Below are positions 8,314 to 38,112 of a stretch of 43,169 nt of DNA, in pieces; the stretch's first letter is position 1, and each line of letters starts with the position of its first letter. Below the pieces are notes generated by a model that ran no database searches, was not told where the DNA came from, and saw only the letters and a program-made list of their open reading frames with translations. This stretch comes from a virus. Made by a program: the position numbers and the translations under genes. Location: the IMG/VR virus record IMGVR_UViG_3300028392_000114, positions 1 to 43,169 of that record. The stretch is one strand, 5' to 3'.

Positions 8314-8580
8314 TCACTCATCGTCTTTATTGTTTTGTTTACTTTTTTCTTCTTCTATCATTACGTCAATTATATTGATTGCTTCTGGAGCATATTTCTC
8401 TTTTTTGTTTTGTCTTTTATTTTTTAAAACTTCTCTTTTATTTCTTTTATTTTCTACTTCGTTTATTTTCGATATAGCTGTGCGTATGTTTTGTTTTACA
8501 TCTATTAAAGAAAAATCTGATGATATATTGGAAAGAGCTTTTTCTAAATAGAATTTAGCCTGAAATGTGTTATTTTTCAT
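8314..8580 (-). CDS. Small charged hypothetical protein
   Basis: The start at 8580 (MKNNTFQAKFYLEKAL) overlaps the upstream stop as ATGA; an in-frame ATG at 8595 is the alternative. The product is 88 residues, strongly basic and helical in the middle (NKRNKREVLKNKRQNKKEK) and acidic at the C-terminus. It has no recognised domain. Its place in the terminase operon fits a small packaging or virion accessory protein, but the sequence gives no direct evidence for that. Confidence 0.65.
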   Translation of the reverse strand: MKNNTFQAKFYLEKALSNISSDFSLIDVKQNIRTAISKINEVENKRNKREVLKNKRQNKKEKYAPEAINIIDVMIEEEKSKQNNKDDE

Positions 8581-9509
8581 ATTCTTTTTATCCATTTTAC
8601 AGCAACGTCCTCAGACAAAACCAGAAAAACATCTCCATTTCTTTTTATATTGCTTTCATCTAGTGTCACCTTCCATGCGTCTTGTCCTTCTAATATCGTA
8701 GCTTCTTTTTTTAGTGTTGTATTATATGGCAAGTATTGTTTTACTCCTAATACTATTTCTTTCTTAATGTTTTCTATAAACTTTCTTTCATTTATCGGAG
8801 TGTTAAAATATAAGCTTATAATTCTTTTTTCTTTAGAGTTTTTAAATAAATTTTCCATCAAACAATCACAATCTTCCTTTAACTTTTTTGGTAGTTGATC
8901 GTTTGGAATATTTGTTATTTGATTATCAACTAGATTTACTATAAAGCTTTTGACATAGCTGCTTCCAACAGAAACAAGAGCCTCAGTTGGGGTGAAATCT
9001 TGATCGGGGTAAATTGCTTCTATAAGTACATTGTGATTGTGCCATTTTATTTTATCAATAGTTAAGTCTATCGAACTACCTATCTCATTTACTTTCCTCA
9101 AAGATTGTGTCGTGTAAGAATTTACAATGCTGTCTATTTCTTTTGAGGTTATGGTGTTGGAATAAAAGCCGTTTTCATATAACAATAAAATGTTTTTTAT
9201 TTTTTCTGTTAATTTGTCTTGTCTATCGAAAGACCACTCGTTAAAACTTTTTCTTTCTGCTGCTACTTTTTTTGGATCTCCTGTTTTAATAGCTATCATC
9301 AATCTTTCTTGATTTGGATATAGTTTTTCCTGCAATAGAGTTTGTATTTCAAATTCATCAATTAAATTTTTCTTCACTTGTTCGACAACAACCGGATCTG
9401 GATTCAGAAACAACGCAGAAATATTTTCAGATAATTTTTCTTTGTATTTTTCTATTGATACTTCTGATTTTATTTGATTTTTAATTTCTATGTATTTTTT
9501 ATATGACAT
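8577..9509 (-). CDS. Hypothetical protein directly behind the large terminase
   Basis: The ATG at 9509 (MSYKKYIEIKNQIKSEV) follows the terminase stop by one base and is preferred over the in-frame ATG at 9542 inside the terminase gene. The product is 310 residues, mostly alpha-helical and charged in its first 130 residues and mixed afterwards. No enzyme motif is visible. Tight coupling to the terminase suggests a late virion or packaging role. In T4 the genes next to gene 17 encode sheath and tube, but this sequence does not look like either. Confidence 0.7.
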   Translation of the reverse strand: MSYKKYIEIKNQIKSEVSIEKYKEKLSENISALFLNPDPVVVEQVKKNLIDEFEIQTLLQEKLYPNQERLMIAIKTGDPKKVAAERKSFNEWSFDRQDKLTEKIKNILLLYENGFYSNTITSKEIDSIVNSYTTQSLRKVNEIGSSIDLTIDKIKWHNHNVLIEAIYPDQDFTPTEALVSVGSSYVKSFIVNLVDNQITNIPNDQLPKKLKEDCDCLMENLFKNSKEKRIISLYFNTPINERKFIENIKKEIVLGVKQYLPYNTTLKKEATILEGQDAWKVTLDESNIKRNGDVFLVLSEDVAVKWIKRI

Positions 9510-19095: not shown

Positions 19096-19173
19096 TATCA
19101 TCCTTTTTTTATTTTTGGCTTTATTTCCGCTATATATTATATCAAGAGTAACCACAAACAAAAGGAGTTGTTG

Positions 19174-22483: not shown

Positions 22484-23167
22484 ATGAACAAGCTGACATA
22501 TTGTTTTATATTTTTGTTTTGTCTAGATATACAACCTACAAAAGAGGATGTATATAACCCTTCAACAAATACAGCAAACCCAGTCTCAGCCTATGAAGGC
22601 TATGTAGACGAAGACCTTACTAACGTAATGGTCCCTATTCCTATGAAGGATAGAGTTTATAATAAAACAGGAATTCAATGCGTATGGGCCTCCACAGAGT
22701 GCATAGGACGGTATGCAGAAGAGCCCAAACTCATAGGACTAACCAATGATAGCGAATGCAAAAGCTACGCAAACCCTACGTCTCTTGCATCAAAACTTAG
22801 AAAACTAAATATCAAATTCGAACAAACCACAAGTAGATCAGATAGAAGTTTATTAATAAAATCTGTTGTAAAAGAACGAAGAGGATGTTTATTTGATGTA
22901 CCAGGTCACGCTATGACCCTAATTCATTATGATGAAGTAGCAGGAATTGTTAAATATATCAATAATAGCGATAAAAGTTTGAAAATAAGAACATGGACAA
23001 TGAAAGAATTCAATCAAAGATGGGCTGGATGGATCTGTGTGATCTATGCAGATAAAGATATTGTGCCTAAAAAATACACTAAATCATATCCAATACCAAT
23101 AATTGATAGAAATAAAGAGCAAGGGGATTATAAAAAAGATTATATATTGCAACCAATATTATTTTGA
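22484..23167 (+). CDS. Secreted papain/C39-like cysteine peptidase
   Basis: A 227-residue protein with a strong ribosome site (AAGGAGG). A short hydrophobic N-terminus (residues 4-14, YCFIFLFCLDI) suggests export. The catalytic Cys is C66 in GIQCVWASTECIGRY, the His is H142 in VPGHAMTLIHYD and the Asn is N160 or N161 in YINNSDK: the C-H-N order and spacing of papain-like/C39-like enzymes. Substrate is unknown; candidates are host envelope proteins or peptide cross-links. It carries its own promoter-like leader with two hairpins and overlaps the gene on the other strand by 9 bp. Confidence 0.75.
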   Translation: MNKLTYCFIFLFCLDIQPTKEDVYNPSTNTANPVSAYEGYVDEDLTNVMVPIPMKDRVYNKTGIQCVWASTECIGRYAEEPKLIGLTNDSECKSYANPTSLASKLRKLNIKFEQTTSRSDRSLLIKSVVKERRGCLFDVPGHAMTLIHYDEVAGIVKYINNSDKSLKIRTWTMKEFNQRWAGWICVIYADKDIVPKKYTKSYPIPIIDRNKEQGDYKKDYILQPILF

Positions 23168-23401
23168 ATCTTTTCCCCTGTAAATACTTCTCTTAGAGGA
23201 AAGAGGAAAATCTTCTTTCCTCTTTTTGTTTTTAGACGTTATCGGTAGATCGTCGCCACCATAAGTCGGAAAAGCACCCGGTCTCTCAAGTTTATTCTTA
23301 ACACCATCGCCACCATCGCCCTCATCCTCAACTCCAGAAGGATTGTTGGCAGACCCACCATAGTATTCAAGTTTAGTCAACCAATTTTTAAAATTTTGCA
23401 T
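23159..23401 (-). CDS. Small Gly/Asp/Lys-rich protein with capsid-targeting-like N-terminus
   Basis: An 80-residue product beginning MQNFKNWLTKLEYYGG, which shares the 'M-x-x-F-x-x-W-L' start with the genes at 36142, 37606 and 35501. The remainder is a disordered-looking Gly/Asp-rich stretch followed by a basic Lys/Arg tail (KNKKRKEDFP). That layout resembles small packaged internal proteins. No clear ribosome site is present. Confidence 0.6.
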   Translation of the reverse strand: MQNFKNWLTKLEYYGGSANNPSGVEDEGDGGDGVKNKLERPGAFPTYGGDDLPITSKNKKRKEDFPLSSKRSIYRGKDSK

Positions 23402-28100: not shown

Positions 28101-28951
28101 CCGCACAAGATGAAGATTACTGGTTGCCAACTAGACCAAATAGCAACACAAGAATAGAAACACTACCAGGGGCAGAAAATCTTGGCGAAATAGATGATGC
28201 TATCTATTTCAGAAACAAACTACTAACAGCATTAAACTTTCCTAAAAATTATTTCAATAACGAAGACCCCAATTCAACCAGAATAACATTAAGCTCACAA
28301 GATGTTAAATTCGCAAGAATGATCGAAAGATTGCAAAGCAACTTCGAAGACGGAATATTAGAACTGGCAGAAAGACACTTGCAGCTACGAGGGTTCCCAG
28401 AAAAATCTTATCAAGATTTAAAAATAAAGATGACTCCTCCATCCGACTGGAGAGAACTATCAAGAGCGGAAGTCACATCAGCAAGATATGGCAATGCAGG
28501 AACATTGAAAAGTAGCGTTCTTATGTCTGATTATGACATAATGACGAGAATTTTGAAATATGGCGAAAACGAAACAGAAGAAATGCTCGCAAGATTGAAA
28601 ATTCAAAAACTAGAAGATCTCAAACTACAAGTAATGGCACAGAATCCACAACTTCTAGGAGTGGGAATTCCAGGTCAAGAACAATCAAATCCAGAACTAG
28701 GAACACAAGCAGGTGGCCCCAACGCAATGCCACAACCAGAAGACGCAGAACAAGCTAATCTTGAGGGCCCTCAAGCTCCACAAGAGCCCACAGGCGAACA
28801 ACCACCACCTGAAACCGGTGAACAACCTGCCGAACCAACTAGTCTAGAAGATCCTTCTGAAGAAGATATTAAGAAGTACGATCTAGAACTACAAGGATAT
28901 GAAGCAGAACAAGATCTAGAAGATATAGATTATAGCGTAGGTGATGAATGA
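25178..28951 (+). CDS. 20: Portal protein (T4 gp20-like) interrupted by two inteins
   Basis: A 1257-codon frame that becomes about 608 residues after removal of two inteins (25472-26167 and 26681-27931). The extein parts match T4 gp20: IYRL followed by TRAPERRVFYIDVGQLPP, then a long helix, then ETLPGAENLGEIDD and the wing and stem regions. The C-terminal ~90 residues (Gln/Pro/Glu-rich) are an unusual extension, since T4 gp20 has 524 residues. The portal is a dodecameric ring through which the terminase packs DNA. The second intein sits exactly in the conserved RAPERR block. Failed splicing would give a non-functional portal, so splicing should be essential. The ribosome site is weak (AAAGAGA). 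Confidence 0.96.
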   Translation: MPIWSDFFKLFTYAGEQDPLSKQKDYRQFQGAGIAQPEALGVDFTGGGPNSGMSNFRQTTDMIDTTTLTNRAMRYKEYERLRNVPEIEMAMTVFSDEACVSGDTRISTPFGPISIKELVETKGDERFLAYCYDFEKRDYTLGWAYAPRYVKDAKTLTIVFDNGSTITCTHDHRILKRDGSWCEAGKLKMNDELMPFYRKPANFRLTKLTQKQYPRIFTLNKGWIHERQFVDDWKTGKVDPKNAAINKAMKMIGAGIPVVKIEEHMDVDWHTLEKWMNRQGFTHKETKELFKLEDKRTILNIHHNDEEQPVYDMSVEKHACFATDSIIVHNCQKDETGNILKVLTNNEDIKKEIEFVLLHRKMLNLNRAGWSWFKSLCIMGDHFVETVINPDNPKEGIYKAVPLPPETMYRIETVKGRTIEYQQAKEGPDYQAIIRGPVDDLNNTELNHTTAIRFATNQIIHFKIGDDRKTFFPYGQSLIEPARGPAHNLRLLEDAMVIYRLCLVGDTRIRTPDGYAYIKNIKNDDFVYSYNSIGETLRAKVINFVNNGMKDVYTVRSKHVQITGTATHPILVNREGIIQYVDIQDLIVGKDKIINITKDEESETEIPNILGETWAKLDVSQRTAFRNTIYKNKSALMRKCGDINRIRQFLYTEGKALPADQAKKICDVFGLEKNKLVTTNKGQANSERIMLPKFVDEEFAKLFGFLIGDGSIRKNNYQLTFSAGLDEKQNVFYKNILEKYFGKVRFEREKRSNNKNLGNYVVDSTVACKILLSMGYIKGVKNKRIPSWVFNASKKIRRAFVEGLSNADGCKRRTKAGTWFSTIELCNKNLVEDTKELWSSIGLCSGKIVNRKRKGGHEIEKGRKMPPTECWSVTVSNKELPKYENVIAVEYAGQEEVYDLTVDNEMHNFVANGIIVHNTRAPERRVFYIDVGQLPPFKAEAFLDRIKDQFRKRKVTSNRGNTPGANQVEERWQPPAQDEDYWLPTRPNSNTRIETLPGAENLGEIDDAIYFRNKLLTALNFPKNYFNNEDPNSTRITLSSQDVKFARMIERLQSNFEDGILELAERHLQLRGFPEKSYQDLKIKMTPPSDWRELSRAEVTSARYGNAGTLKSSVLMSDYDIMTRILKYGENETEEMLARLKIQKLEDLKLQVMAQNPQLLGVGIPGQEQSNPELGTQAGGPNAMPQPEDAEQANLEGPQAPQEPTGEQPPPETGEQPAEPTSLEDPSEEDIKKYDLELQGYEAEQDLEDIDYSVGDE
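25472..26167 (+). other. Intein 1 in the portal protein (232 aa, no LAGLIDADG endonuclease)
   Basis: It starts at Cys (CVSGDTRI, block A) and ends VHN before the next extein residue Cys (CQKDETGN). Block B is TCTHDHRIL, block F is YDMSVEKHACFA and block G is SIIVHN. The middle contains no LAGLIDADG or HNH motif. Instead it has a helix-turn-helix-like region (residues about 243-280 of the precursor, AAINKAMKMIGAGIPVVKIE then HTLEKWMNRQGF). It is therefore a mini-intein that either lost its endonuclease or carries an unfamiliar DNA-binding insert. Confidence 0.92.
26681..27931 (+). other. Intein 2 in the portal protein (417 aa, LAGLIDADG homing endonuclease)
   Basis: It begins CLVGDTRI (block A) and ends in VHN, followed by extein Thr of TRAPERR. 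Block B is GTATHPIL. The endonuclease core has two LAGLIDADG-like helices: KLFGFLIGDGSI and AFVEGLSNADGC, both with the catalytic acidic residue, so it is probably still a mobile element. Block F is YDLTVDNEMHNFVA. The nucleophile at the downstream splice site is Thr, which is allowed (+1 Ser, Thr or Cys). Confidence 0.95.
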
Positions 28952-29190
28952 TCAATTTGTTTCCTAAAATATCAATGAAGAATAAGAATATTATAAAACA
29001 ATCCTCCTCAGTAGGATGTTATCATTGTTGTAAAATATTCGATCCCAAAGAAGTAACAGAATATACAGATAATAACGAAACTGGAATATGCCCACATTGC
29101 CTCGCAGACTGTTTAGTAGGAGACAAATGTGGGTTTGTTCTAGATGAAAATATCTTGATTAAAGCAAAAAAATGTTGGTTCAATCTCTAG
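28948..29190 (+). CDS. Small zinc-ribbon protein
   Basis: An 80-residue product overlapping the portal stop as ATGA. Four Cys in CYHCC and CPHC (plus C59 and C74) form a zinc ribbon, and the pattern 'GCYHCCKIFDPKEVTEYTDN' followed by 'DENILIKAKKCWF' matches a small family of cytoplasmic ribbon proteins found in bacteria and phages. Function is unknown. It overlaps the convergent neighbour at 29180 by 11 bp. Confidence 0.7.
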   Translation: MINLFPKISMKNKNIIKQSSSVGCYHCCKIFDPKEVTEYTDNNETGICPHCLADCLVGDKCGFVLDENILIKAKKCWFNL

Positions 29191-29767
29191 ATTTTCTCTT
29201 CTTCTCTGGCTTGTCTGACTTGTTCAAAAACCCGCCACATTCACGGCACTTAGCTTTGCCAGCATTAATATCATATATTGAAGCTCTTGCTTCTGCTCCA
29301 CATCTACTGCAAATAGCTTTTGTTTCAATCAAATAAGCTTCGCCTTTGTAAGAATCAGCAGCATTAGGAACCATCGCATTAGATGGCTGCTGAGGAGAAC
29401 CGGCGTTGCCCATAGAGGCATCACCACTAGAAACATCTCCTAACCCCTTAGACGAATTAGATGAAATTCTCTTGGCAGCTCTACTAGCAGCAACACCTAG
29501 ATCTTTCAAACTATCAAAATCATGTTGAGATAACATTTGTTCCACTTGATCTTTAACTTCTGGAACACTCTGCACAATACTCTTTAACATGCCGATAGTT
29601 TGACTTCCTTTAGCTCCCAATATAAGCAAAAAAGCTTGAAGGGCCGTGTCTACAGCAGCTTCAGAATTCGCATCTAGGCTTACATTATTTGCCCCGCCAA
29701 ATATATCTTTTCCCATATTCATAGCGGACATTTCCCGCAGCTTTACATATTCTACAAATTTTCTCAT
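29180..29767 (-). CDS. Hypothetical protein with capsid-targeting-like N-terminus and C-terminal zinc ribbon
   Basis: The start MRKFVEYVKLREMSAMNM at 29767 has a strong AGGAGAG and is preferred over the frame start at 29800. The 195-residue product has a targeting-like N-terminus with L-R-E at residues 10-12, a helical middle (QTIGMLKSIVQSVPEVKDQ), a Ser/Gly/Asn linker and a zinc ribbon (CSRCGAE and CRECGG) before a basic Lys/Arg tail. Location beside the portal fits an internal head protein. No catalytic motif is visible. Confidence 0.65.
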   Translation of the reverse strand: MRKFVEYVKLREMSAMNMGKDIFGGANNVSLDANSEAAVDTALQAFLLILGAKGSQTIGMLKSIVQSVPEVKDQVEQMLSQHDFDSLKDLGVAASRAAKRISSNSSKGLGDVSSGDASMGNAGSPQQPSNAMVPNAADSYKGEAYLIETKAICSRCGAEARASIYDINAGKAKCRECGGFLNKSDKPEKKRKSRD

Positions 29768-29915: not shown

Positions 29916-31757
29916 ATGAAAAGAAAACTAATTAGTTTTGATGTGTTCAAAAAAATAGAAGAACAATCACTCACAAATGCTCAGAAAGAATTAATTGAGG
30001 CTCAAGATGTTTTGGCCGAAGCATTGGGCGTAGAAGGTCTTGAGTTGTTCACTTTTGGCGAGTCAGAAGTAACATACGAAACCCCAGACGGAACTTATAT
30101 TCACGCTACCTATACAATTAAGGATGATAGTATCATTCTTGAAAACATCGAACAACTAGTAATAGACCAAGAGAGCGAAAAAAATAGCAATCGTTCAATC
30201 ATTTCAAAAATGGTTGATTCAATCATAGACAATAAAGATGCGACCGCCGCTCACCAGTTCGAACAATATATGAGCTCGCCATCTGTAAAACGTAGCTTAA
30301 ATGAAGCGACTTGGAAAGTAACAAGCTCTAGACCAACTGGTAGACATGGATCCCAATGGCGCAAGCATCGTAATCGATCCGCTGTCGCAAAGGGAGTTAG
30401 ATCAAGACTGAAGACCTTGGCCCGTATGTCTCCAAGCCAAAAGAAACAACTCGCAAGAGAAAGAGCAAGAGCGAGAAAGAGATTGGGCGGATCAAGCAAC
30501 CCACGTGCACGTGTTTATGCAAGAAAAATCAAGAAGAGCCACATGAAAGAATGGAACAATCTTGTTGAAAATGTAATCAATTACATTAATTACAAAAACT
30601 TCGGCCCAGCAATGAATGAGTCATTTGTAAGACAAGATAATAATGGCGAAATAAACGCCATTGCAGTTCCAACCGCCCTAAAAAGGAATGAAGGCAAAGT
30701 GCTTTCTTTCAATTGGGACACACTAGACCATGAAGTCAAAGTAGTTCGTAGCAAGATGAAGAATGTTAAAGAAGACAATAACTTCGTTAAAGCAATGGCA
30801 GATCTAAAAAGATATAACAATATCTCCGACAACAGCTCGCTCGAAACAACTCTAGAAGCTATTGTCACCCGTTGGCCAGATCTAATCTACGTTACCGAAG
30901 AAGAGTTGGCAACACAGATTTCTCACGCTTTAGAATCTGCTGCTATCAAGAATTATGACGATGAAATATGCTCTTTTATGGCCGAAGCTATTCTAAGAAC
31001 CGCTCATAACGCATACACAGATCGTGTAAAGAAAATAGCTGTACTAGCCGGTGTAGAAGATGACATCACCGCAGAGTGCAGAGAATGTGAAGATGCATAC
31101 GGTAGCTTCAAGAAAGTAGTCGAACAATTCTACGTAACGCTTGATGAATCAGAATCAAAAGAACTACAAGTGTTCGTTGATCTTTTCAACGCTCTACGTG
31201 AAGTTCGTGAAATTGCTGTAGAAGCAGAAGATTCTGAAACCGTAAGAGAAACCGAAGATCTTTTAGAACAGTGTGCTGCTGTACTAAACAAAGAAAGCAA
31301 GATGGACCTAGAACTAGCAGAAGAAGTTGCTGATTATATCTCCTATTTCCTAGAAGCTAATATCGACGGAGCTTCAAACGATTGGGATGTTGTTACAACT
31401 CCTCACCACACAGTATATGGAGATCATCCATATGTAAGCAAAATGGCTAAAGTAGACGGTACCCCTTCTGTTCACAACGGTGATTGGAAAAGTGCTGCCC
31501 CTGTTAGTGACGGTAAAAGCTACAACGGTGATCTAGATGATGAAATGCAAAGCAATGGATGGAGCAATCTTGGCGGAAATGATATCTGGCCATCACTAGA
31601 TAATCCCTATGTACCAAAGGCAAGTGATTACAAAATGAAAGAGAAATCAGTTGTCGATGATGGTGATGAATTGGCACAGAATCAGTCAAATGATACTTGG
31701 CCAAATCTAAATAACCCTTACGTTAAGGGTGCAGTTATGCCCAGAGACGTCAAATAA
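29916..31757 (+). CDS. Prohead core-like internal protein (basic plus acidic regions)
   Basis: A 613-residue product between the portal and prohead protease, the slot of genes 67 and 68 in T4. The N-terminus ISFDVFKKIEEQ resembles the targeting motif, and I-E-E and L-N-E (residues 128-130) match the T4 gp21 cleavage consensus (L/I-x-E). Residues about 131-208 are extremely basic (RKHRNRSAVAKGVRSR, RERARARKRLGG) and could bind DNA; the C-terminal half is acidic. Two C-terminal repeats read WPSLDNPYV and WPNLNNPYV. I infer a packaged core protein. A ribosome site (GGGAG) is about 11 bases upstream. Confidence 0.72.
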   Translation: MKRKLISFDVFKKIEEQSLTNAQKELIEAQDVLAEALGVEGLELFTFGESEVTYETPDGTYIHATYTIKDDSIILENIEQLVIDQESEKNSNRSIISKMVDSIIDNKDATAAHQFEQYMSSPSVKRSLNEATWKVTSSRPTGRHGSQWRKHRNRSAVAKGVRSRLKTLARMSPSQKKQLARERARARKRLGGSSNPRARVYARKIKKSHMKEWNNLVENVINYINYKNFGPAMNESFVRQDNNGEINAIAVPTALKRNEGKVLSFNWDTLDHEVKVVRSKMKNVKEDNNFVKAMADLKRYNNISDNSSLETTLEAIVTRWPDLIYVTEEELATQISHALESAAIKNYDDEICSFMAEAILRTAHNAYTDRVKKIAVLAGVEDDITAECRECEDAYGSFKKVVEQFYVTLDESESKELQVFVDLFNALREVREIAVEAEDSETVRETEDLLEQCAAVLNKESKMDLELAEEVADYISYFLEANIDGASNDWDVVTTPHHTVYGDHPYVSKMAKVDGTPSVHNGDWKSAAPVSDGKSYNGDLDDEMQSNGWSNLGGNDIWPSLDNPYVPKASDYKMKEKSVVDDGDELAQNQSNDTWPNLNNPYVKGAVMPRDVK

Positions 31758-31778: not shown

Positions 31779-32468
31779 ATGGATCCCACAAAACTAACAC
31801 TGTTTGTAGATAGCTGCAACCACTCTGGATTTACCTTAGACCTTAATGAGTCCACCGATAAAGGACTAACAAGCTTTAAAGGTAAATTCCAAGAAGCAGA
31901 AGCAGTTAATAAAAATAAAAGAATATACCCATACGCTGTGCTAGATGAGAATGTCAAGAAATTGGTACCTATCATCGAAGCACGAGGATTAGTAGGCGAA
32001 TTAGATCACCCAGCAGATAGTATAATTCATTTTGAAAAATGTTCACACATTATTACTAAGCTATGGTGGGAAGGTAATAGCCTAATGGGGCAAGGAGAAA
32101 TTCTCAACACTCCTCACGGAAGAATACTAAGAAGTCTTCTAAATGATGGTGTGAGAATTGGAATCAGCAGCCGTGGCGTAGGCAACGGTAGGAATGACGA
32201 GAATGGAATTTTGGTAATTGGCGAAAGTTATAAGCTAATCACTTTTGACGCCGTAGCCGATCCGAGCACCTATTCTGCTTTCCAGGAGAAAGTAGTAGGT
32301 AAGAAAGAAAGTTTCGATCCAACAGTAACAAGATCTTCTTTTGTAGAAAAAAACTCTGCAAAAAATAACAGTAGCTGCATACATACTGTTAACAAAGAAG
32401 CACTTGTCGCTTGCTTGGGTGGAATTATTGAACAAAAGACAAATAACATTAAGAAAAAACTTAATTAA
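31779..32468 (+). CDS. 21: Prohead protease (T4 gp21-like)
   Basis: A 229-residue product with AAAAAGGAG upstream. The catalytic pair of the herpes-assemblin-like serine protease fold is visible: H77 in VGELDHPAD and S130 in RIGISSRGVG. It would mature the prohead by cutting scaffold, core and capsid proteins after (L/I)-x-E. The gene sits in the T4 order before scaffold and capsid. The C-terminal segment after residue 175 is probably a cleavable tail. Confidence 0.95.
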   Translation: MDPTKLTLFVDSCNHSGFTLDLNESTDKGLTSFKGKFQEAEAVNKNKRIYPYAVLDENVKKLVPIIEARGLVGELDHPADSIIHFEKCSHIITKLWWEGNSLMGQGEILNTPHGRILRSLLNDGVRIGISSRGVGNGRNDENGILVIGESYKLITFDAVADPSTYSAFQEKVVGKKESFDPTVTRSSFVEKNSAKNNSSCIHTVNKEALVACLGGIIEQKTNNIKKKLN

Positions 32469-32514: not shown

Positions 32515-33405
32515 ATGGATAAAATAGTAGAAGCATTAAAAAAACTTTTGCCCGAAACCGAAGTTAATGAAGTTTCATCCGCAGTGCAACAAATGCTAGA
32601 GTCAGCTAAATCAGATCTAGAGGCGGAGTTCAATCAAAAACTTGAAGAAGCCTATGTTGAACTTTCAAGCGAAGTTGCAGAAGCAGAACAAGTAGCAGAA
32701 AAAGGATACGAAGAAGCATACGCAATAATTGCCGATCTACGTAACCGCTTAGAACTTCAAGGTGAAGAATATAAGGCTGCACTCGAAGAAGGATACGAAG
32801 AAGCATACGAAATGCTAAAAGGTGAAAAAGGCAAGAATCAAAAACTCGAAGTAGAAATGTACGAAGAGTATGATAATAAACTTGCTGAGATGAAAGAGTA
32901 TATTGTAGATAAAGTTGACCAGTTCCTACAGTTTAAAGGTCAAGAGATTTATGAACAAGCCAAACGTGAAATCATCAACGATCCACGTATGGTCGAACAT
33001 AAAGTAGCTCTCAATAAGATCGTAGATATTACTGCCAACTACCTCTCTGATGATGGTTTCGCTGCTGTCTCTTCAGCAAAAGTTGAAGAAGCAAATAAAT
33101 CAATCGAAGAAATGAAAGGACAGCTTCGCATTATGGAAGCTAGAAACATCAGACTTTCAACCGAAAACACTAAGCTAAACGAATCAGTTCGCCAAGCTCA
33201 CGATGTAATTACTGAAAGCCGCAAAGTCGTTACGCAAACTAGAAAAGAAGCCGTAATGAACGAACAGAAAGAAAGAACCGAAAAAGCAAAGAATGTAACG
33301 GGGAGAGGAAGGTCGGATGATGGTGTGGTCATATCGGAATATGCATCACAAAACTCTGGAACAGATCAATTATTGATCCTATCCGGACTAAAACAAGCTC
33401 AATAA
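32515..33405 (+). CDS. 22: Prohead scaffold protein (T4 gp22-like)
   Basis: A 296-residue, Glu- and Lys-rich coiled-coil protein with TTAGGAG upstream. Two near-identical segments, GYEEAYAIIADLRNRLE and GYEEAYEMLKGEKGKNQ, sit about 30 residues apart. It lies between the prohead protease and the capsid gene, as in T4. It would form the core of the prohead and be degraded by the protease. The C-terminus LLILSGLKQAQ resembles the C-terminus of the ParB-like protein at 36572. Confidence 0.9.
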   Translation: MDKIVEALKKLLPETEVNEVSSAVQQMLESAKSDLEAEFNQKLEEAYVELSSEVAEAEQVAEKGYEEAYAIIADLRNRLELQGEEYKAALEEGYEEAYEMLKGEKGKNQKLEVEMYEEYDNKLAEMKEYIVDKVDQFLQFKGQEIYEQAKREIINDPRMVEHKVALNKIVDITANYLSDDGFAAVSSAKVEEANKSIEEMKGQLRIMEARNIRLSTENTKLNESVRQAHDVITESRKVVTQTRKEAVMNEQKERTEKAKNVTGRGRSDDGVVISEYASQNSGTDQLLILSGLKQAQ

Positions 33406-33437: not shown

Positions 33438-34871
33438 ATGAACGCAAATTCACAATTTCTAAATGAAGCTAAAGAGCTAGAAACTCGCTGGGCGCAGACA
33501 GGTCTCCTCGAAGGCATTCAAGACAGATTTACTCGCTCTGCAACAGCAGTTCTACTCGAAAACCAAAGACTCATGAATGAGACCAGCACCGATACAGGTG
33601 ACGTTGCTCAGTTCAAACGAATCAGCATTCCGCTAGTTCGCAGAATTTACCCACAGCTTATCGCTAACAAGATCGTCAGCGTACAGCCACTACTCGGACC
33701 AACCGGACTAGTGTACTACCTCCGTTTCCGTTACGGCAGCAACAAGGGTGCAACCCGTGGTGCTTCCAAAAGCGGATTCCCATCGGATGATTCAAACAGC
33801 TTGATGCAGTTGGCAGACGGTACTGCTAACCTAGATATTTTCTACAGCAGCCAGTTTGTACAGAACGAAAGAACCAATGTCGATCCAGGCACCGGTACTT
33901 CCGTAACCTACTCCGCTCTAGAACATACTCCAATTCTAGCTGGTACTGTCACAGGTACAGTTTATGACGGCAACACAGCAGTACAGACCTTCGTGGTCTC
34001 TTCTTCTGGTACCTTCAACTTTACCACAATTGGTTCACCTGGTGATTACGCAACCGGCGGTTCACTAGATCTAGTAAGTGGCGAACTATCACTAACTTGG
34101 GACAGTGCAGCAGGTGATAACCACGTTGTAATCAGCTATGAATACAACATGGAATGCAATCAGGATCTACCAGAAATCAATCTCGTGATCGAGTCAGAAG
34201 AAATTGCTGCCAAGACACGCAAATTGAAAGCAGTTTGGAGCTACGAAGCTCAGCAAGATCTCCGCTCACAGCACAATCTAGATGCTGAAGCTGAGCTAAC
34301 CGCTGTTCTAGCTCAAGAAATTAACCTCGAAATCGACCGTGAAGTTCTAACCGATCTTCGTAACAACGCTGGTACCGTATCAGCTTGGGATTTCAATACA
34401 GCTCTCGGTGATACCATCAAAGAGAAGTATGAATCACTATATGTTAAAGTTGTCGAAATCAGTAACGTAATTCATCGTAAGACATTACGTGGTGGTGCTA
34501 ACTGGCTAGTAACAAGCCCAGAAGTTGCCTCAATATTTGAGACAGCAACCGCCGGCTTCGCTCCAGCCCCAAGTGAAACTTTCACAAGCTCACTAGGTGT
34601 TCAGTATGTCGGTACTGTTAATAACAGATGGAGACTATACAAAGATCCACTATTCCCAAGCAATCAAGTATTGATGGGATATAAGGGTGATAGCTACATG
34701 GACAGCGGATATTTCTACTGCCCTTACGTACCACTCACTCAGACACCAGTGGTTCTCGATCCAGAATCCTTTTGCCCACGCAAGGGAATTTTAACAAGGT
34801 ATGGGAAAAAACTCCTTCGTGAGGGTGCCAAGTTTTATGCAAGATTGAGTATCGCTAATTTTGTGATATAG
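33438..34871 (+). CDS. 23: Major capsid protein (T4 gp23-like)
   Basis: A 477-residue HK97-fold capsid protein. Conserved T4 gp23 blocks are RKLKAVWSYEAQQDLRSQH, LAQEINLEIDREVLTDL, VLMGYKGDSYMDSGYFYCPY and ILTRYGKK. Near the N-terminus FLNEA (L8-N9-E10) and GLLEG (L23-L24-E25) match the (L/I)-x-E cleavage rule of the prohead protease, so a short propeptide may be removed. T4 gp23 loses 65 residues. Codon use looks more C-ending and the gene less AT-rich than neighbours, as expected for the most abundant virion protein. The ribosome site is AGAAGGA. Confidence 0.97.
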   Translation: MNANSQFLNEAKELETRWAQTGLLEGIQDRFTRSATAVLLENQRLMNETSTDTGDVAQFKRISIPLVRRIYPQLIANKIVSVQPLLGPTGLVYYLRFRYGSNKGATRGASKSGFPSDDSNSLMQLADGTANLDIFYSSQFVQNERTNVDPGTGTSVTYSALEHTPILAGTVTGTVYDGNTAVQTFVVSSSGTFNFTTIGSPGDYATGGSLDLVSGELSLTWDSAAGDNHVVISYEYNMECNQDLPEINLVIESEEIAAKTRKLKAVWSYEAQQDLRSQHNLDAEAELTAVLAQEINLEIDREVLTDLRNNAGTVSAWDFNTALGDTIKEKYESLYVKVVEISNVIHRKTLRGGANWLVTSPEVASIFETATAGFAPAPSETFTSSLGVQYVGTVNNRWRLYKDPLFPSNQVLMGYKGDSYMDSGYFYCPYVPLTQTPVVLDPESFCPRKGILTRYGKKLLREGAKFYARLSIANFVI

Positions 34872-35067: not shown

Positions 35068-35361
35068 ATGTACCAAGTCAAGTGCCCAGAATGTGGAGAA
35101 GAAAGAATTGTAAAAGCAAAAAAGAAATGGATGGAAGAAGGCTTTGTTAAAATCTGTATGAGCTGTTGTCAAAAAGGAAAAAAGAAAAGTTCCGAAACAA
35201 TTGCCAAACTCTCTGAAATTGCCCCTCGGTACAGGGTTGGGGCGATCTCACTTTTTTCCCTCACGGCTTTCAGGAGTGCCGCTGCCATTTCTCTTCGCTC
35301 TTGCGTTATTTTTTCTGACCCATCAGGAGGCGGAGTTCCGTCAATTTCGTCCTGCACGTGA
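35068..35361 (+). CDS. Truncated zinc-finger/NUMOD3-like fragment (homing-endonuclease remnant)
   Basis: The start MYQVKCPECGEERIVKAK at 35068 has a clear AAGGAG. The first 50 residues look authentic: two Cys pairs (CPEC, CMSC) and GKKKSSETIAKLSE, which matches the NUMOD3 motif found beside GIY-YIG and HNH homing endonucleases. After about residue 50 the reading continues in sequence that is the antisense of the gene at 35169, so the C-terminal half is not real protein homology. I infer that a deletion or recombination near 35210-35225 removed the rest of the gene. Confidence 0.55.
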   Translation: MYQVKCPECGEERIVKAKKKWMEEGFVKICMSCCQKGKKKSSETIAKLSEIAPRYRVGAISLFSLTAFRSAAAISLRSCVIFSDPSGGGVPSISSCT

Positions 35362-35501
35362 GTTCTGAGCTTTGAAGGATCGCCCTTCCAAACAACGATT
35401 GCAGCCTTCAACGCCTGCTGTTCGTTCTTAAACGCTTTCGTGCCAACATCTAGTGCTTTACCTTCATTGGTTAACCATTGTTTAAAGCTTGAACTATTCA
35501 T
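35169..35501 (-). CDS. Truncated ADP-ribosyltransferase-like protein with capsid-targeting-like N-terminus
   Basis: It begins MNSSSFKQWLTNEGKALDVG, with the 'F-x-x-W-L' leader. Residues 20-90 are helical and better conserved-looking than the end (EQQALKAAIVVWKGDPSKL). APTLYRG near residues 90-96 is the typical first motif (R of the R-S-E triad) of arginine-specific ADP-ribosyltransferases such as the T4 Alt/ModA group. The S and E motifs are absent because the frame ends 15 residues later in sequence antisense to the NUMOD3 fragment. The region looks more GC-rich than its surroundings. T4 Alt is itself a packaged, injected protein with a targeting peptide, which fits. Confidence in the ART call is moderate. 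Confidence 0.55.
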   Translation of the reverse strand: MNSSSFKQWLTNEGKALDVGTKAFKNEQQALKAAIVVWKGDPSKLRTHVQDEIDGTPPPDGSEKITQERREMAAALLKAVREKSEIAPTLYRGAISESLAIVSELFFFPF

Positions 35502-35504
35502 ATT

Positions 35505-35529
35505 ATTATATATTGTGTACCTATATATT
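35505..35529. promoter_or_regulatory. Back-to-back late-promoter-like boxes in a 31-bp divergent gap
   Basis: The start codons at 35501 (minus) and 35533 (plus) are 31 bases apart. TATATAAT (minus strand, 35505-35512) lies 3 nt before the minus ATG, and TATATATT (plus strand, 35522-35529) lies 3 nt before the plus ATG. Neither has a ribosome site. Confidence 0.45.
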
Positions 35530-35532
35530 TAC

Positions 35533-35661
35533 ATGAATATTATTGAAGGTGTTATATTTTACACATTGATGACTGGTTTGTGGAAGTGGGTTCTTTTGTT
35601 TTTAGTTACTGGTATTTTGGCATTTTTTATTGGACGTTTTTCGAGAGGGAGTGAATTTTGA
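35533..35661 (+). CDS. Small membrane protein (42 aa)
   Basis: A 42-residue product (MNIIEGVIFYTLMTG...) with a single long hydrophobic helix (about residues 17-34, KWVLLFLVTGILAFFIG) and a basic end (RFSRGSEF). The ATG at 35533 directly follows a TATATATT box. Its stop overlaps the TTG start of the next gene (TTGA), the same coupling used by the nuclease/methylase pair at 5626. Role unknown; holin-like or spanin-like proteins have similar size, but no support beyond the helix exists. Confidence 0.6.
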   Translation: MNIIEGVIFYTLMTGLWKWVLLFLVTGILAFFIGRFSRGSEF

Positions 35662-36080
35662 GTAATAATCCTATGAATCTCAATAAGTTACCACAATACT
35701 TAGAATCTATTAGAAGTGGTGGTAAAGTTGACGAAGGCGTTGTTGTTGATATTGGTCAAATAGTTAGTCCTTCTTCTTTTAATTGGCGTAGAAATTCTGC
35801 ATTTGCCATAACTGCGTGTTTATTGTTAGTGATTGGGTCTGCAGTAACATATACTAATTTAGTTGAAAACAAGATTACAGTAATAATGAGTACAAATAAT
35901 CTTAGTGCAGAAAATGTTTTGCAACTAGTGTCTTTGACTGGTGGGCAGGTTGTTAATGTGAAGCAAAAAGAAGACTATACTTACGAATTGAGGATAGAAA
36001 GACTAAAAAATGTAAAGTCTTTTCTTGAGAGTTTGAGAAAAAACAAAGATATCAATAATGTAGAGAAAATAGGTTTGTAG
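35658..36080 (+). CDS. Single-pass membrane protein
   Basis: The start is TTG at 35658 (an ATG five codons later is the alternative) with GAGAGGGA upstream. The 140-residue product has a charged N-terminal domain of about 45 residues, a transmembrane helix (residues about 47-66, AFAITACLLLVIGSAVTYT) and a C-terminal domain (about 75 residues) with small alpha/beta character. It is coupled to the 42-residue membrane protein before it. No family is recognised. Confidence 0.68.
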   Translation: MSNNPMNLNKLPQYLESIRSGGKVDEGVVVDIGQIVSPSSFNWRRNSAFAITACLLLVIGSAVTYTNLVENKITVIMSTNNLSAENVLQLVSLTGGQVVNVKQKEDYTYELRIERLKNVKSFLESLRKNKDINNVEKIGL

Positions 36081-36141
36081 GTCTGTCAAAATAAATCTGT
36101 CCTAGCAACTATATATTTTGTCGTATTTTAGAAGGGATATT

Positions 36142-36522
36142 ATGAAAAAATTTAATGAATGGTTAAAAGAAAGAAATAAAATAGAAGAAGGCATTGCGGA
36201 TTACACTCCAGGGTTTATAAGAAGGCCACTGCAGAACGTTGGCATGATGGGTAAAACTACTGCGGAAAAGGAGCGTATAAAGGAACTGCAACGGGAAATT
36301 GATGCGGCTGATGATGAAGAGTATAAGCAGAGATTGCAAGCAGTGGCTCTTAAAATTAGTAACGATTCTGCATTGAAAGAATACGAGAGAGAACAACGCA
36401 GAAAAGAGATGGAAAAAAAAGAGAGGGAGCGGGATACCTTCCGCCCCCGGCCAAATAAAATAAATCAACCATCCATCTACCATCTACCATCATACGGCGG
36501 CGGTAGGCATCCTGGCGAATGA
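36142..36522 (+). CDS. Small charged internal-protein candidate with capsid-targeting-like N-terminus
   Basis: The start MKKFNEWLKERNKIEEG at 36142 is preferred over the frame start at 36118, because AGAAGGG lies just before it. The 126-residue product has I-E-E (residues 14-16) as a possible gp21-type cleavage site, then a Lys/Glu/Arg-rich helix (EYEREQRRKEMEKKERER) and a Pro/Gly-rich tail. It fits a packaged DNA-associated protein. No named family. Confidence 0.65.
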   Translation: MKKFNEWLKERNKIEEGIADYTPGFIRRPLQNVGMMGKTTAEKERIKELQREIDAADDEEYKQRLQAVALKISNDSALKEYEREQRRKEMEKKERERDTFRPRPNKINQPSIYHLPSYGGGRHPGE

Positions 36523-36571
36523 ATATTGAGTTAAAATACAAGATCGTATTTCTTAATTTAAAGAAGGTTTA

Positions 36572-37603
36572 ATGAAAAATTTTTATGAAATGTTAAAGCT
36601 CATAGAGCAAGTTCCAAATGCTGTGCCTAACGTTGCTGCTCCACAGATGCAGAATCCTGCACAAAATGCTGCTGCTCCACAGATGCAGAATCCTGCACAA
36701 AATGCTGCTTCGCAAAACGCAAACAATGTGCAAGCACAACCGGGTTCTGATCCTGCTGAGGATGGGAAATTAAAAAATTTGCTAGGTAAAAATTACGAAC
36801 AATTCGTAAAAGAATTGAAAGGCAATGTAAGTGACCCTAAATTTTTAGCATTCATTCAGGCTGGATTGCAAGATGGTCGTGTTGCTCAAGATGATATGGT
36901 AAAATTTACATCTGGACCACTATCGTGTGCCGCCTTAACGCCCACTCAGAACGAGATAGACGTAGATAAATCTCTTTCTTTTCCATTAAAAAAAGAAAAC
37001 GCACAAACAATATTGTCTTATATCAAAGGTGGGACGTTTGCACCAGGAGGGGCAATAGTAACATGTGGTGGAAAATACATTATAGATGGCCACCATCGGT
37101 GGAGCCAATTATATTGTATGAACCCGAATGCTCAAATACAAGCAATGAACATGGATGGTATTACAGATCCAGAATTAGCATTAAAGATAGTTCAGCTGTC
37201 AATAGCAGCAACAACAGGACAAATAAACACAGCTGAGGTAAAGGGATCTAATCTATTGTTGATGGGCGAACAACAAATTAAAGAATACATTTCGACAAAT
37301 ATGGGTGAAAATGCTAAACAAGCTTTCTCGCAAGTTGCACAGGGCCAAGACCCAATTGCTTATGCTCAACAGTATATTTGGGAAAATGTTTCTAAAATGC
37401 AACAGAATAATAAGCCTATAAGCGGAGCATCTAAAAGAGATTTTATGCCACAAACAGATTCAGGTGGAAAATTCGCACAAGAATTGCAAAAAGGAGCAGT
37501 TAATTGGACACAAGGACAACAAAAACAAGTTGCACACACGGACAATAACGGCCCTAGTTTGAACGAGTGGGCGATACTATCAGGAATCAAAAAGAATTAT
37601 TAA
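36572..37603 (+). CDS. ParB-like nuclease-domain protein with capsid-targeting-like N-terminus
   Basis: A 343-residue product with AGAAGG upstream. It starts MKNFYEMLKLIEQ, with L-I-E as a possible cleavage site. A disordered Ala/Gln/Pro/Asn stretch follows with a 12-residue tandem repeat (APQMQNPAQNAA). The core has LTPTQNEIDV and IIDGHHRWSQ (DGHHRW at 172-177), a signature of the ParB/sulfiredoxin-like fold, which includes nucleases and CTPases. The C-terminus (WAILSGIKKNY) is like that of the scaffold protein. A packaged enzyme acting on nucleic acid after injection is plausible but inferred. Confidence 0.7.
   Translation: MKNFYEMLKLIEQVPNAVPNVAAPQMQNPAQNAAAPQMQNPAQNAASQNANNVQAQPGSDPAEDGKLKNLLGKNYEQFVKELKGNVSDPKFLAFIQAGLQDGRVAQDDMVKFTSGPLSCAALTPTQNEIDVDKSLSFPLKKENAQTILSYIKGGTFAPGGAIVTCGGKYIIDGHHRWSQLYCMNPNAQIQAMNMDGITDPELALKIVQLSIAATTGQINTAEVKGSNLLLMGEQQIKEYISTNMGENAKQAFSQVAQGQDPIAYAQQYIWENVSKMQQNNKPISGASKRDFMPQTDSGGKFAQELQKGAVNWTQGQQKQVAHTDNNGPSLNEWAILSGIKKNY
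36635..36709 (+). repeat. 36-bp direct tandem repeat encoding APQMQNPAQNAA
   Basis: Two copies of a 36-bp unit lie head to tail, giving a duplicated 12-residue peptide in the disordered N-terminal part of the ParB-like protein. Unit length preserves the frame. Confidence 0.9.
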
Positions 37604-37605
37604 AA

Positions 37606-38112
37606 ATGAAAACTTTTCATCAGTGGCTTGAAAATCAACAAGTAGACATTAATCAAATTGCTAGTGGCTTACAATTTCAGCCTACAACCAAGAAGAAATT
37701 AATGTATCAATATGTCCAGTCTACAGATAACATGCCACCTATGAGTTATGCTGTTGCAAACCAGCAGATGCCTGTTGTAACAATGACTAGCGATGGAAAA
37801 GAGACTCAAAACACAGCAGAGCCAAATGATATAATAATGAGTGGTCCTAGCAGAGAGCAATATGTTTTGAAGTCTGCTAAATTCCCTAAATTATATGTTG
37901 GTAATATGGGAGGACCGGTACATCCTGAGCAATCTCCTAGAAACGTTGCGGTTTACACAGGCAATGTTGCTGTTTCTTTTATGGCACCTTGGGGAGAGAG
38001 TATGGTGTTGAAACCTGGTGATTATTTAGTAAAAGAAGATGAAGGCAAATATTATCGTATTGCTAAGGTCGAATACGAATTAACTTATAATCCTCCTGGT
38101 AAAATTGGTTGA
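37606..38112 (+). CDS. Hypothetical protein with capsid-targeting-like N-terminus
   Basis: The start MKTFHQWLENQQVDINQ at 37606 lies 2 nt behind the ParB-like gene's stop. The frame's longer start at 37567 lies inside that gene. The 168-residue product has a disordered Gln/Pro-rich N-terminal part and a beta-rich C-terminal domain (about residues 90-165, YVLKSAKFPKLYVGNM, VAVYTGNVAVSFMAPWGES). No catalytic motif is recognised. The 'M-K-T-F-x-x-W-L' start is the closest in this window to the T4 leader M-K-T-Y-Q-E-F-I. Confidence 0.68.
   Translation: MKTFHQWLENQQVDINQIASGLQFQPTTKKKLMYQYVQSTDNMPPMSYAVANQQMPVVTMTSDGKETQNTAEPNDIIMSGPSREQYVLKSAKFPKLYVGNMGGPVHPEQSPRNVAVYTGNVAVSFMAPWGESMVLKPGDYLVKEDEGKYYRIAKVEYELTYNPPGKIG

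What the first reader, a model, noticed from the sequence alone, without database searches (positions are those of the whole stretch)
35169..38112. A family of unrelated proteins sharing a capsid-targeting-like N-terminus
Seen in sequence: several otherwise different proteins begin with Met, then F-x-x-[WMFY]-[LV]: MKKFNEWLKER (36142), MKTFHQWLENQ (37606), MKNFYEMLKLIEQ (36572), MNSSSFKQWLTNE (35501 minus), and, elsewhere in the window, MQNFKNWLTKLE (23401 minus), MRKFVEYVKLRE (29767 minus), and more weakly ISFDVFKKIEE (29916) and MSFNMFLEM (838). Established knowledge: T4 internal head proteins and Alt carry a short leader of the type M-K-T-Y-Q-E-F-I that directs them into the prohead, then gp21 cuts after (L/I)-x-E. 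Many of the examples have such a site close behind the leader (I-E-E, L-I-E, L-R-E). Inference: these are the phage's packaged, injected effectors, including a ParB-like protein and an ART-like fragment. That would define a head-borne arsenal from sequence alone.
Basis: partly seen in the sequence, partly recalled or inferred. Interest (0 to 1): 0.88.

Follow-up and report, generated by a model that had tools for sequence, protein, structure and literature searches.

The report
Address tags for phage-head cargo
Giant relatives of phage T4 appear to put a short removable address tag on the front of many unrelated proteins, probably so that they are loaded into the virus head and released into the next host, which would let a virus's pre-packed toolkit be read from its genome.

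Summary
The window is part of a T4-like phage (gp21 S77 protease, gp23); its closest phage record is a 595-kb metagenomic huge phage. The leader M-x(1-5)-F-x-x-[W/F/Y]-[L/I/V/M] (Met once) sits on 6 of 47 called genes here (a leave-out profile expects about 0) plus 35501(-), and on 196 of 3,834 genes in 15 related sets, in 137 blastp clusters. Residue spacing equals T4's capsid-targeting sequence MKTYQEFIAE, whose residues 4 and 7 steer targeting and 8 and 10 processing. [L/I]-x-E sites are enriched behind it. The best evidence is exchange: the 37606 body (66-79% identical) carries this leader in some phages, a second leader (LAGIITE / LSGLINE) in others, and both in one. The second leader copies the scaffold tail plus a protease site; ParB-like 36572 itself ends in that tail. 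Cargo includes Nudix, thymidylate kinase, C39 peptidase, HAD and Acb1-like anti-CBASS folds. Head targeting is well supported; virion presence, cleavage and injection are inferred. The ART-like fragment is unsupported. Outside this clade the FxxWL peptide alone is not diagnostic.

The parts
37606..38112 (+). Cargo protein, 168 aa: leader MKTFHQWLEN followed by a conserved PGDYG-like body
   Evidence: Profile score 21.5. Pfam PGDYG E 6.6e-5, below its cut-off. Orthologs carry other leaders on the same body. AlphaFold2: residues 1-11 are the only segment under pLDDT 50.
36572..37603 (+). ParB-like cargo, 343 aa: leader MKNFYEMLKLIE, disordered linker, folded domain, disordered C-terminal segment
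   Evidence: Score 11.6. Model has helix 2-11, mostly pLDDT under 50 over 13-58, folded about 60-300, under 50 over 314-343. Top Foldseek hits ParB-N, E 0.01-0.06.
37565..37600 (+). Scaffold-like C-terminal tail EWAILSGIKKNY of the ParB-like protein
   Evidence: Like the gp22 tail QLLILSGLKQAQ. In the G016-like contigs both proteins end in ...LAG[IL]....
36142..36522 (+). Leader protein, 126 aa: MKKFNEWLKE; F4, W7, L8, E10 match the T4 geometry exactly
   Evidence: Score 16.7. AAGG upstream of the ATG. No homolog outside this phage in the loci held.
35169..35501 (-). Leader protein, 110 aa: MNSSSFKQWLTNE; the suggested ART relation is not supported
   Evidence: Sequence. No Pfam match at E 0.1. 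One PHROG of unknown function at E 0.0066.
29180..29767 (-). Leader protein MRKFVEYVKLRE beside the gp20-gp21-gp22-gp23 cluster, probably a prohead core or internal protein
   Evidence: Score 11.4. AGGAG upstream. Homologs beside the head genes in G006, G011, G012, G013.
23159..23401 (-). Leader protein MQNFKNWLTKLE, 80 aa
   Evidence: Score 14.9. Homologs with different but conforming leaders in L004, L005, L007, L008.
838..3297 (+). Large protein, leader MSFNMFLEM from an ATG at 847
   Evidence: Score 12.9. Homologs begin MQTSFREFL (G013) and MPLISYKLFLEM (G012).
8577..9509 (-). Probable Tyr variant of the leader, MSYKKYIEIK
   Evidence: Score 5.9 only. Homologs in G001 and G006 begin MSSFAKYLESK and MSFMKYLENK.
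29916..31757 (+). Conserved 613-aa gene between portal and protease, probable prohead core protein; not a typical leader protein
   Evidence: Homologs next to gp21 in 14 of 15 related sets, not G016; N-terminus MKRKLIxFDxF conserved.
31779..32468 (+). gp21-like prohead protease (S77), expected to cut after [L/I]-x-E
   Evidence: Pfam PF03420 E 1.1e-25; PHROG 207 E 8.7e-48.
32515..33405 (+). gp22-like scaffold (inferred from position); tail QLLILSGLKQAQ at 33367-33402
   Evidence: Lies between protease and gp23, no PHROG at E 0.01, no relevant Pfam. Tail conserved in relatives.
33438..34871 (+). gp23 major capsid protein
   Evidence: Pfam PF07068 E 9.5e-88.

Best explanation
The N-termini are capsid-targeting leaders of the T4 kind. 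During head assembly the leader, two aromatic residues three apart followed by an aliphatic one, docks the protein onto the prohead core. gp21 then cuts after a nearby [L/I]-x-E, and the freed protein stays in the head with the DNA and leaves with it at infection. In this huge-phage clade each contig studied has between 4 and 27 such starts, and unrelated genes gain, lose or exchange the leader. A second leader does the same job: a copy of the scaffold's C-terminal tail (LAGI / LSGL) fused to a protease site (ITE, INE, ISE), so such cargo poses as scaffold and is then cut free. Shown here: the motif, its genome-wide N-terminal enrichment, the enrichment of LxE behind it, diverse bodies, leader exchange on one cargo, and likeness of leader B to the scaffold tail. 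Inferred: docking partner, cutting, packaging, injection, and function in the host.
For: (1) Leave-one-out profile: 207 N-terminal ATGs at >=10 bits against about 5.7 expected from internal ATGs, summed over 15 sets. Pooled regex with W/F/Y: 236 of 5,007 vs 58 of 12,955; with the spacing changed by -1 or +1, 18 vs 27 and 28 vs 66 of the same totals, ratios 1.7 and 1.1. (2) An unsupervised count of N-terminal triples, run on five related sets, ranks aromatic-x-x-aromatic-aliphatic first in G001 and G007, second in G003, third in LR756511, and not in G016. (3) A Phe-or-Tyr version of the motif finds 6 T4 ORFs, two of which begin MKTYQEFIAEA; these are IPII and IPIII by recall. That the IPII and IPIII propeptides are identical, and that residues 4 and 7 steer targeting and 8 and 10 processing, is in PMC9026906 section 10. 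(4) [L/I]-x-E within 17 residues from the leader's own L in 92 of 188 leaders against 43.6 +/- 5.3 in shuffles; 41% even without the leader's L, vs 17% of non-leader proteins. Glu at F+8 in 74 of 188 (39%) vs 6.1% background. (5) 196 proteins fall into 137 clusters. (6) Same 37606 body with leader A (window, L452, L454-L456), leader B (L453, L008) or both (L451, where leader A is the variant FREWR). (7) Leader B in a scan of viral contigs: 82 of 88 complete ORFs have it within 30 aa of the first ATG, 18.5 expected. (8) ParB-like protein and scaffold share a tail in two clades; leader B and scaffold tail match in a cultured Flavobacterium phage.
Against: No virion proteomics. About half of the leaders lack an obvious [L/I]-x-E. 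Leader starts have a Shine-Dalgarno-like site less often (61 of 195) than starts of non-leader genes (928 of 1,744), though more often than internal ATGs (1,567 of 12,680). The motif also appears, probably by chance, in a DNA-primase family (MxxDFxxFVxW, 7 of 12 cluster members scored as leader) and on a T4 homolog in G016 that is probably a 5'-3' exonuclease. A DNA scan for KTFK[EQ]W[L/F]E in all viral contigs gave 25 hits; 16 are at the C-terminus of their ORF, and only four lie within 30 aa of an ATG (L435, L432 and two 34-aa ORFs), so leader A is meaningful only within its clade. Leader genes are mostly outside the head cluster: in six contigs 18 of 118 lie within 15 kb of gp23, where 227 of 2,608 genes lie. 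No exact TATAAATA late promoter upstream of 195 leader genes; one-mismatch matches are mixed. Leader B is rare in the 20 genome sets held whole or in part: 4 N-terminal against 4 other matches.
Confidence: 0.84

Rival explanations
1. The leader proteins are mainly structural or morphogenetic parts of the prohead core (like T4 gp67 and gp68), mostly destroyed during maturation, and not injected effectors.
For: 29767- and its relatives sit beside the head genes in sister phages. Most cluster representatives have no recognisable enzyme: 136 scanned gave matches to 42 Pfam families in all, nearly every listed one in a single member and several in the same member.
Against: Cargo includes clear enzymes: Nudix, thymidylate kinase, C39 peptidase, HAD-like, Acb1-like 2H, CCA-adding enzyme. 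Cargo differs from phage to phage, and nine consecutive leader genes stand 86 kb from gp23 in G007 (92474-98275).
Confidence: 0.25
2. The N-terminal motif is an address for another place in the infected cell (membrane, phage replication compartment) or a generic amphipathic start helix; head targeting is a coincidence of form.
For: No virion data. The motif is short and helix-like (helix 2-11 in the 36572 model). Some carriers are nucleotide-metabolism enzymes that would be useful during replication.
Against: Spacing and residue classes equal the T4 sequence tested for targeting. LxE sites follow it. It is exchanged with a scaffold-tail leader on the same body. phiKZ, a giant phage without an S77 Pfam match, shows no excess (0 vs 1.8 expected at >=10 bits in 240 of 280 kb).
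Confidence: 0.1
3. Common descent or chance: one gene with this N-terminus was duplicated many times and the bodies diverged, or the motif reflects composition near starts.
For: Neighbouring genes in the G007 cassette have near-identical leaders (MITFKQFLEN), suggesting copying of the 5' end.
Against: Bodies belong to unrelated known folds. The same body carries non-homologous leaders. Shifted-spacing and internal-ATG controls are flat. Copying of a leader would itself fit the targeting model.
Confidence: 0.05

Closest known systems
Bacteriophage T4 capsid targeting sequence (CTS) of the internal proteins, cut by gp21
   Same: N-terminal, about 10 residues, aromatic at two positions three apart followed by an aliphatic residue, Glu soon after; T4-type gp21 and gp23 present; unrelated bodies share it.
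   Different: 4 to 27 candidate starts per contig here (2 in G016 of another clade), against two T4 ORFs with the MKTYQEFIAEA leader; Phe and Trp/Phe/Tyr instead of Tyr and Phe; spread over many enzyme folds and a tandem cassette; alternates with a scaffold-tail leader that I did not see in T4.
phiKZ/SPN3US ejection-protein propeptides
   Same: Head proteins of giant phages with N-terminal propeptides cut after Glu.
   Different: Per PMC5694885 (passages) those propeptides are mostly far longer than T4's. phiKZ shows no excess of this leader.
Phage P1 DarB capsid targeting
   Same: The N-terminal 30 residues suffice to bring a reporter into the head (PMC9024508, passages).
   Different: P1 Dar proteins show no consensus N-terminus by BLAST according to that paper; P1 appears to have no separate scaffold.
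Head-packaged ART, Nudix and 2H effectors predicted from gene fusions and neighbourhood (PMC9503650, passages)
   Same: Same idea that phages pack NAD/ADP-ribose and nucleotide-signal enzymes in the head.
   Different: Those predictions rest on fusions to MuF or portal and on gene neighbourhood; here a detachable leader marks the cargo wherever its gene lies.

Membership tests
T4 capsid targeting sequence | Located at the very N-terminus of otherwise different proteins | tested here: met
   leader ATG is the first ATG of the ORF in 165 of 195.
T4 capsid targeting sequence | Aromatic residues at the places of T4 residues 4 and 7, aliphatic at 8 | tested here: met
   Spacing specific; shifts of -1 and +1 not enriched. 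T4 roles of the residues from PMC9026906 section 10. 36572 has Met at the second aromatic place.
T4 capsid targeting sequence | [L/I]-x-E cleavage site at or just behind the leader | tested here: inconclusive
   Enriched as a class (92 of 188 vs 43.6 in shuffles), but present in only 4 of the 8 quoted window proteins (read).
T4 capsid targeting sequence | Phage has a T4-type prohead protease, scaffold and gp23 | tested here: met
   S77 and Gp23 matches; S77 over cut-off in 15 of 16 related records searched. The scaffold is inferred from position and conserved tail.
T4 capsid targeting sequence | Directs proteins into the head and is removed there | not testable with these tools
   Needs virion mass spectrometry or reporter fusions.
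ParB/Srx-like fold (36572) | ParB N-domain fold and motif | tested here: inconclusive
   Top four Foldseek hits are ParB-N (E 0.010-0.058, TM 0.17-0.28); no Pfam hit at E 0.1; PDB profile search without a ParB. Invariant DGHHRWS in 12 of 12 aligned sequences; its likeness to ParB is recalled.
ADP-ribosyltransferase (35169-35501) | Profile match to an ART family | tested here: not met
   No Pfam family at E 0.1; one PHROG of unknown function at E 0.0066. The ORF may be a fragment.
phiKZ-type propeptides | phiKZ-like giant phage head | tested here: not met
   gp23 of the window is T4-type; only 2 genes of the 15 related sets have a phiKZ match at E 1e-6 (240 of 280 kb of phiKZ held).

The most novel reading that the evidence does not exclude
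T4-like phages share a general head-loading code with at least two interchangeable tags. Tag A (F-x-x-W/F/Y-L) docks on the prohead core. Tag B is a portable copy of the scaffold's own C-terminal tail with a protease site built in, so the cargo poses as scaffold and is cut free inside. Phages swap tags between genes and between phages, and huge phages use them to load dozens of enzymes, anti-CBASS-like ones among them, so the injected proteome can be read from sequence.
Probability: 0.65. Interest if true: 0.9.

Novelty: new variant of a known kind. Interest (0 to 1): 0.8.

Why it matters
Which proteins giant and environmental phages bring into a cell before any phage gene is read is an open question, and many such phages are known only from metagenomes. 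A sequence-readable address would list these proteins directly, including early counter-defence candidates among genes of unknown function. The scaffold-tail leader also suggests how new cargo arises: by copying a short tag onto any gene. Both ideas could be tested with reporter fusions and virion proteomics in a cultured T4-like phage such as the Flavobacterium phage immuto.

Tried and rejected
Late-promoter test: no exact TATAAATA upstream of 195 leader genes in four genome sets; with one mismatch leader vs non-leader shares were 0.32 vs 0.16, 0.42 vs 0.27, 0.09 vs 0.14, 0.05 vs 0.03, so no clear signal. Other dialects by unsupervised triples: none convincing in XacN1, P-SSM4, T4, phiKZ or G016. 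A general hydrophobic pattern h-x-x-h-h-x-E was noisy. C-terminal triples were dominated by Lys-rich ends. Collection-wide DNA scan for leader A gave mostly C-terminal matches and is counted against generality. PDB profile search with the ParB-like alignment gave nothing significant. Foldseek on the 37606 model gave no match at E 0.001. S-AdoMet lyase: 2 of 15 records over cut-off (G009, whose N-terminus reads MIDFGFKEYLQLQE, and G007, without leader) and a sub-threshold leader-bearing match in G001, so not claimed. A related-loci search with another leader protein of G015 (L226:9538-10200) gave only one locus besides the same phage. No host was assigned to the window. One of 137 clusters had no representative lying within one 20-kb piece and was left out of alignment A1 (136 sequences). 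Pfam, PHROGs and NCBIfam scans of A1 show only the first 25 of 42, 51 and 52 families, so the cargo list is partial.

Considered and rejected: that the leader is a signal peptide. A few regex hits are signal-peptide-like (20858-21310 minus, MKFFSNFIFFLIFLSFSGC, score 8.0) and were treated as false positives.
Full report
What is there. The window is a 43-kb piece of a T4-like phage: an S77 prohead protease at 31779-32468 (Pfam E 1.1e-25) and gp23 at 33438-34871 (E 9.5e-88). The gene between them is inferred to be the scaffold gp22 from its place; it matches no PHROG at E 0.01. Its gp23 is 79.6% identical to that of LR756511, a 595-kb metagenomic phage; the other 2,512 phage records with a match are below 60%. 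A gp23 search of viral contigs found 384 relatives and kept the best 80 loci; the contig G015 (63.5 kb, identical gp23, the same phage) extends the window, and others belong to contigs of up to 533 kb.

All eight quoted N-termini exist. I called genes mechanically (longest ORFs, little overlap) in 14 related contigs joined from 20-kb pieces and in 195 kb of LR756511. G015 is the window's own phage, G016 belongs to another clade (gp23 33.5% identical), and G005 and G008 show identical BLAST statistics for the genes compared, so not all 15 sets are independent. A position-specific profile of the leader was trained with the tested genome left out. At >=10 bits the numbers of N-terminal ATGs against the number expected from internal ATGs of the same genes were: G001 27 vs 0.4, G003 21 vs 0.6, G004 21 vs 0.5, G005 13 vs 0.5, G006 20 vs 1.5, G007 22 vs 0.0, G008 9 vs 0.2, G009 9 vs 0.4, G011 12 vs 0, G012 4 vs 0, G013 9 vs 0.9, G014 4 vs 0, G015 12 vs 0.4, G016 2 vs 0.3, LR756511 22 vs 0; window 7 vs 0. 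Controls: phiKZ 0 vs 1.8, T4 0 vs 0.5, P-SSM4 3 vs 0.4, XacN1 5 vs 0.0 (three genes, two of them with the same protein at the two ends of the record). Training genomes are relatives, so homologous genes help each other; the internal-ATG control does not remove that. However, an unsupervised count of N-terminal residue triples puts aromatic-x-x-aromatic-aliphatic at the top in G001 and G007 (38 vs 9.7 and 28 vs 1.5 expected). Moving the second aromatic by one residue removes the excess, as does Leu or Met in its place or Tyr, Trp or Leu in place of the Phe (ratios 1.1 to 1.7); F-x-x-[W/F/Y] followed by a residue other than L, I, V or M keeps a smaller excess, ratio 2.5.

It is T4's motif. Searched with Phe or Tyr allowed, the pattern finds 6 T4 ORFs, two of which begin MKTYQEFIAEA; these are the internal proteins IPII and IPIII (recalled; the identity of their propeptides is in the paper). 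In T4, residues 4 and 7 of this leader govern targeting and 8 and 10 processing (PMC9026906, section 10 read in full), and gp21 cuts after L/I-x-E (same paper, passages). MKKFNEWLKE at 36142 has F4, W7, L8, E10. Across 188 distinct leaders, [L/I]-x-E occurs within 17 residues from the leader's L in 92 (shuffles 43.6 +/- 5.3, maximum 65 in 200 runs); without the leader's own L the share is 41%, against 17% of 2,025 non-leader proteins and 11% within the bodies of the longer leader proteins; non-leader proteins exceed their own shuffles slightly (96 of 600 vs 78.2). Glu is at F+8 in 74 of 188.

The bodies are unrelated. 196 leader proteins of 15 sets form 137 blastp clusters at E 1e-6. Of 136 representatives, matches to 42 Pfam families were found at E 0.001 (25 shown), among them Nudix, thymidylate kinase, S-adenosylmethionine decarboxylase, poly(A)-polymerase/CCA enzyme, HAD-type, radical SAM, peptidase C39 with C70, zeta-toxin-like kinase, and the anti-CBASS family Acb1 with the 2H superfamily. 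The Acb1-like gene matches over cut-off in 3 of 15 records (G001, G003, G006), and all three encode an F-[RK]-Q-F-L leader before the domain (in G001 at residue 8, in G006 from an internal ATG, so my profile missed both); three weaker matches (G004, G014, LR756511) have only a Y-R-P-F stretch. G007 has nine consecutive leader genes at 92474-98275 (threshold 8). Of 160 genes with a T4 or P-SSM4 homolog, 3 carry the leader, against 196 of 3,834 overall; the difference is in the expected direction but not strong (Fisher p 0.064). In six contigs leader genes are somewhat denser near gp23 (18 of 227 genes within 15 kb, 100 of 2,381 elsewhere) but most lie elsewhere. A primase family, whose N-terminus MxxDFxxFVxW resembles the leader, is my clearest false positive; a small G004 gene at 216556, whose nine homologs lack the leader, is probably another. 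The DNA scan of all viral contigs for the leader-A core gave 25 hits, 16 of them at ORF C-termini.

Leaders are exchanged on one cargo. A search with the 37606 protein gave eight loci among viral contigs, one of them the same phage; L008 was found by tblastn among loci held. On a body 66-79% identical over the alignment, the N-termini are: MKTFHQWLEN (window), MKTFREFVEMMQE (L452), MSTALFRKYIDMINEAQ (L454, L455, L456, identical as far as printed), RYLAGIITESQY (L453), LFLSGLINEEAY (L008), and in L451 MKSFREWRED followed by LYLSGVISEDFY, both tags in tandem, the first in a variant without the aliphatic residue; L457 lacks its 5' end. Homologs in Yersinia and Vibrio phages and in XacN1 align only from about residue 57 on and start differently.

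The second leader is a copy of the scaffold tail. In this clade gp22 ends ...L[IV]LSG[LV]K in nine listed scaffolds (window and G015 being one phage); G009 and G005 keep LSG[LV] without the K, and G004, G014 and LR756511 end ...LAGTAK, LAGTAR or LAGRK; G008 was not printed. The tail pattern occurs at 16 of 3,816 gene ends: 10 scaffolds, the ParB-like protein in both copies of this phage, and 4 unrelated genes. In the G016-like contigs gp22 ends RMQQLAGI[IV]K (4 of 4 read); in cultured Flavobacterium phage immuto, RWQKLAGIIK; in XacN1, MMKLAGIKG; the T4 and P-SSM4 genes at that place lack it. In all 120 loci 182 ORFs carry this or a close variant, the 180 with bodies of 50 aa or more forming 79 clusters, one of 49 members; some loci are duplicates. 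Leader B also occurs in the window's own clade: L008, L038, L050 (two), L055 and L070 among the gp23 loci, and L387, which holds two leader-B genes and a scaffold ending LVLSGVKKAQ. It is rare there, however: 4 N-terminal matches against 4 elsewhere in the 20 genome sets. Independently, the ParB-like protein 36572 ends EWAILSGIKKNY like its own scaffold, and its G016-like orthologs end in R-L-[QK]-K-L-A-G-[IL] like theirs; in G016, L086, L088 and L090 its gene lies between protease and scaffold. Some orthologs start with other leader-like N-termini (MRIKLIDLLKEAEE, MVRLEEYILEN, MKLSELKKLIRSVIKEAEE), while L086, L088 and L090 start MRIRI(I)KEDE or MKIRIKETEE with little room for a leader. The model of 36572 shows a leader helix, a disordered linker, a folded core and a disordered C-terminal segment, as expected of detachable tags; the core is most like ParB N-domains, below significance.

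What is known. T4's use of its leader to load proteins, including foreign ones, is established (PMC3012670 and PMC9026906, passages). Packaging of ART, Nudix and 2H enzymes in phage heads has been predicted from fusions and gene neighbourhood (PMC9503650, passages). I found no paper describing a genome-wide set of such leaders in huge phages or the LAGIITE leader, in searches of an open-access library only; subscription papers and preprints were not covered, and of the papers listed I looked into six.

Judgement. Head targeting by a T4-type leader is the best reading of the class; individual members, above all 36572 (Met variant) and 35501-, are less certain. Injection and effector function are inference.

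Noticed in passing
window 25178-28951 (+): The portal-like ORF (1257 aa) seems to hold two intein-like insertions (stretches beginning CVSGDTRI and CLVGDTRI and ending HNC/HNT); read by eye, no tool run.
   Followed up: no
G001 58150, 453411, 517817, 524328; G006 46019, 177670; G012 76961; G009 45344; LR756511 part 188014: Short ORFs away from gp23 that match pieces of gp23 (37-85% identity); scattered capsid-gene fragments of unknown meaning.
   Followed up: no
L095 9923-15082: Nearby genes begin MVRLEEYILEN, MKSLLECIDEA, MKSLSELILEA, MKSLTEYMNES: possibly a third leader dialect in a contig (G010) with no S77 match.
   Followed up: partly
L299 2294, 2880, 13188, 23355 and 3806, 17631, 18632 (immuto): Two further repeated N-termini in one cultured phage, of the kinds MKKSQLRxIIKEEL and NFDLKKFLVENKL.
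   Followed up: partly
window 19081-20880 (+): HEFGHA metallopeptidase-like ORF whose internal ATG gives MLHFLRKWLSGLNQ, a possible further leader protein outside my 30-codon limit (read).
   Followed up: no
L307, L316, L357, L363, L382 (77-aa ORFs): Small MNPKDTIKLDV proteins end in the scaffold-like tail KRMQRLAGIIK or close variants, so the tail also occurs on small non-scaffold proteins.
   Followed up: no
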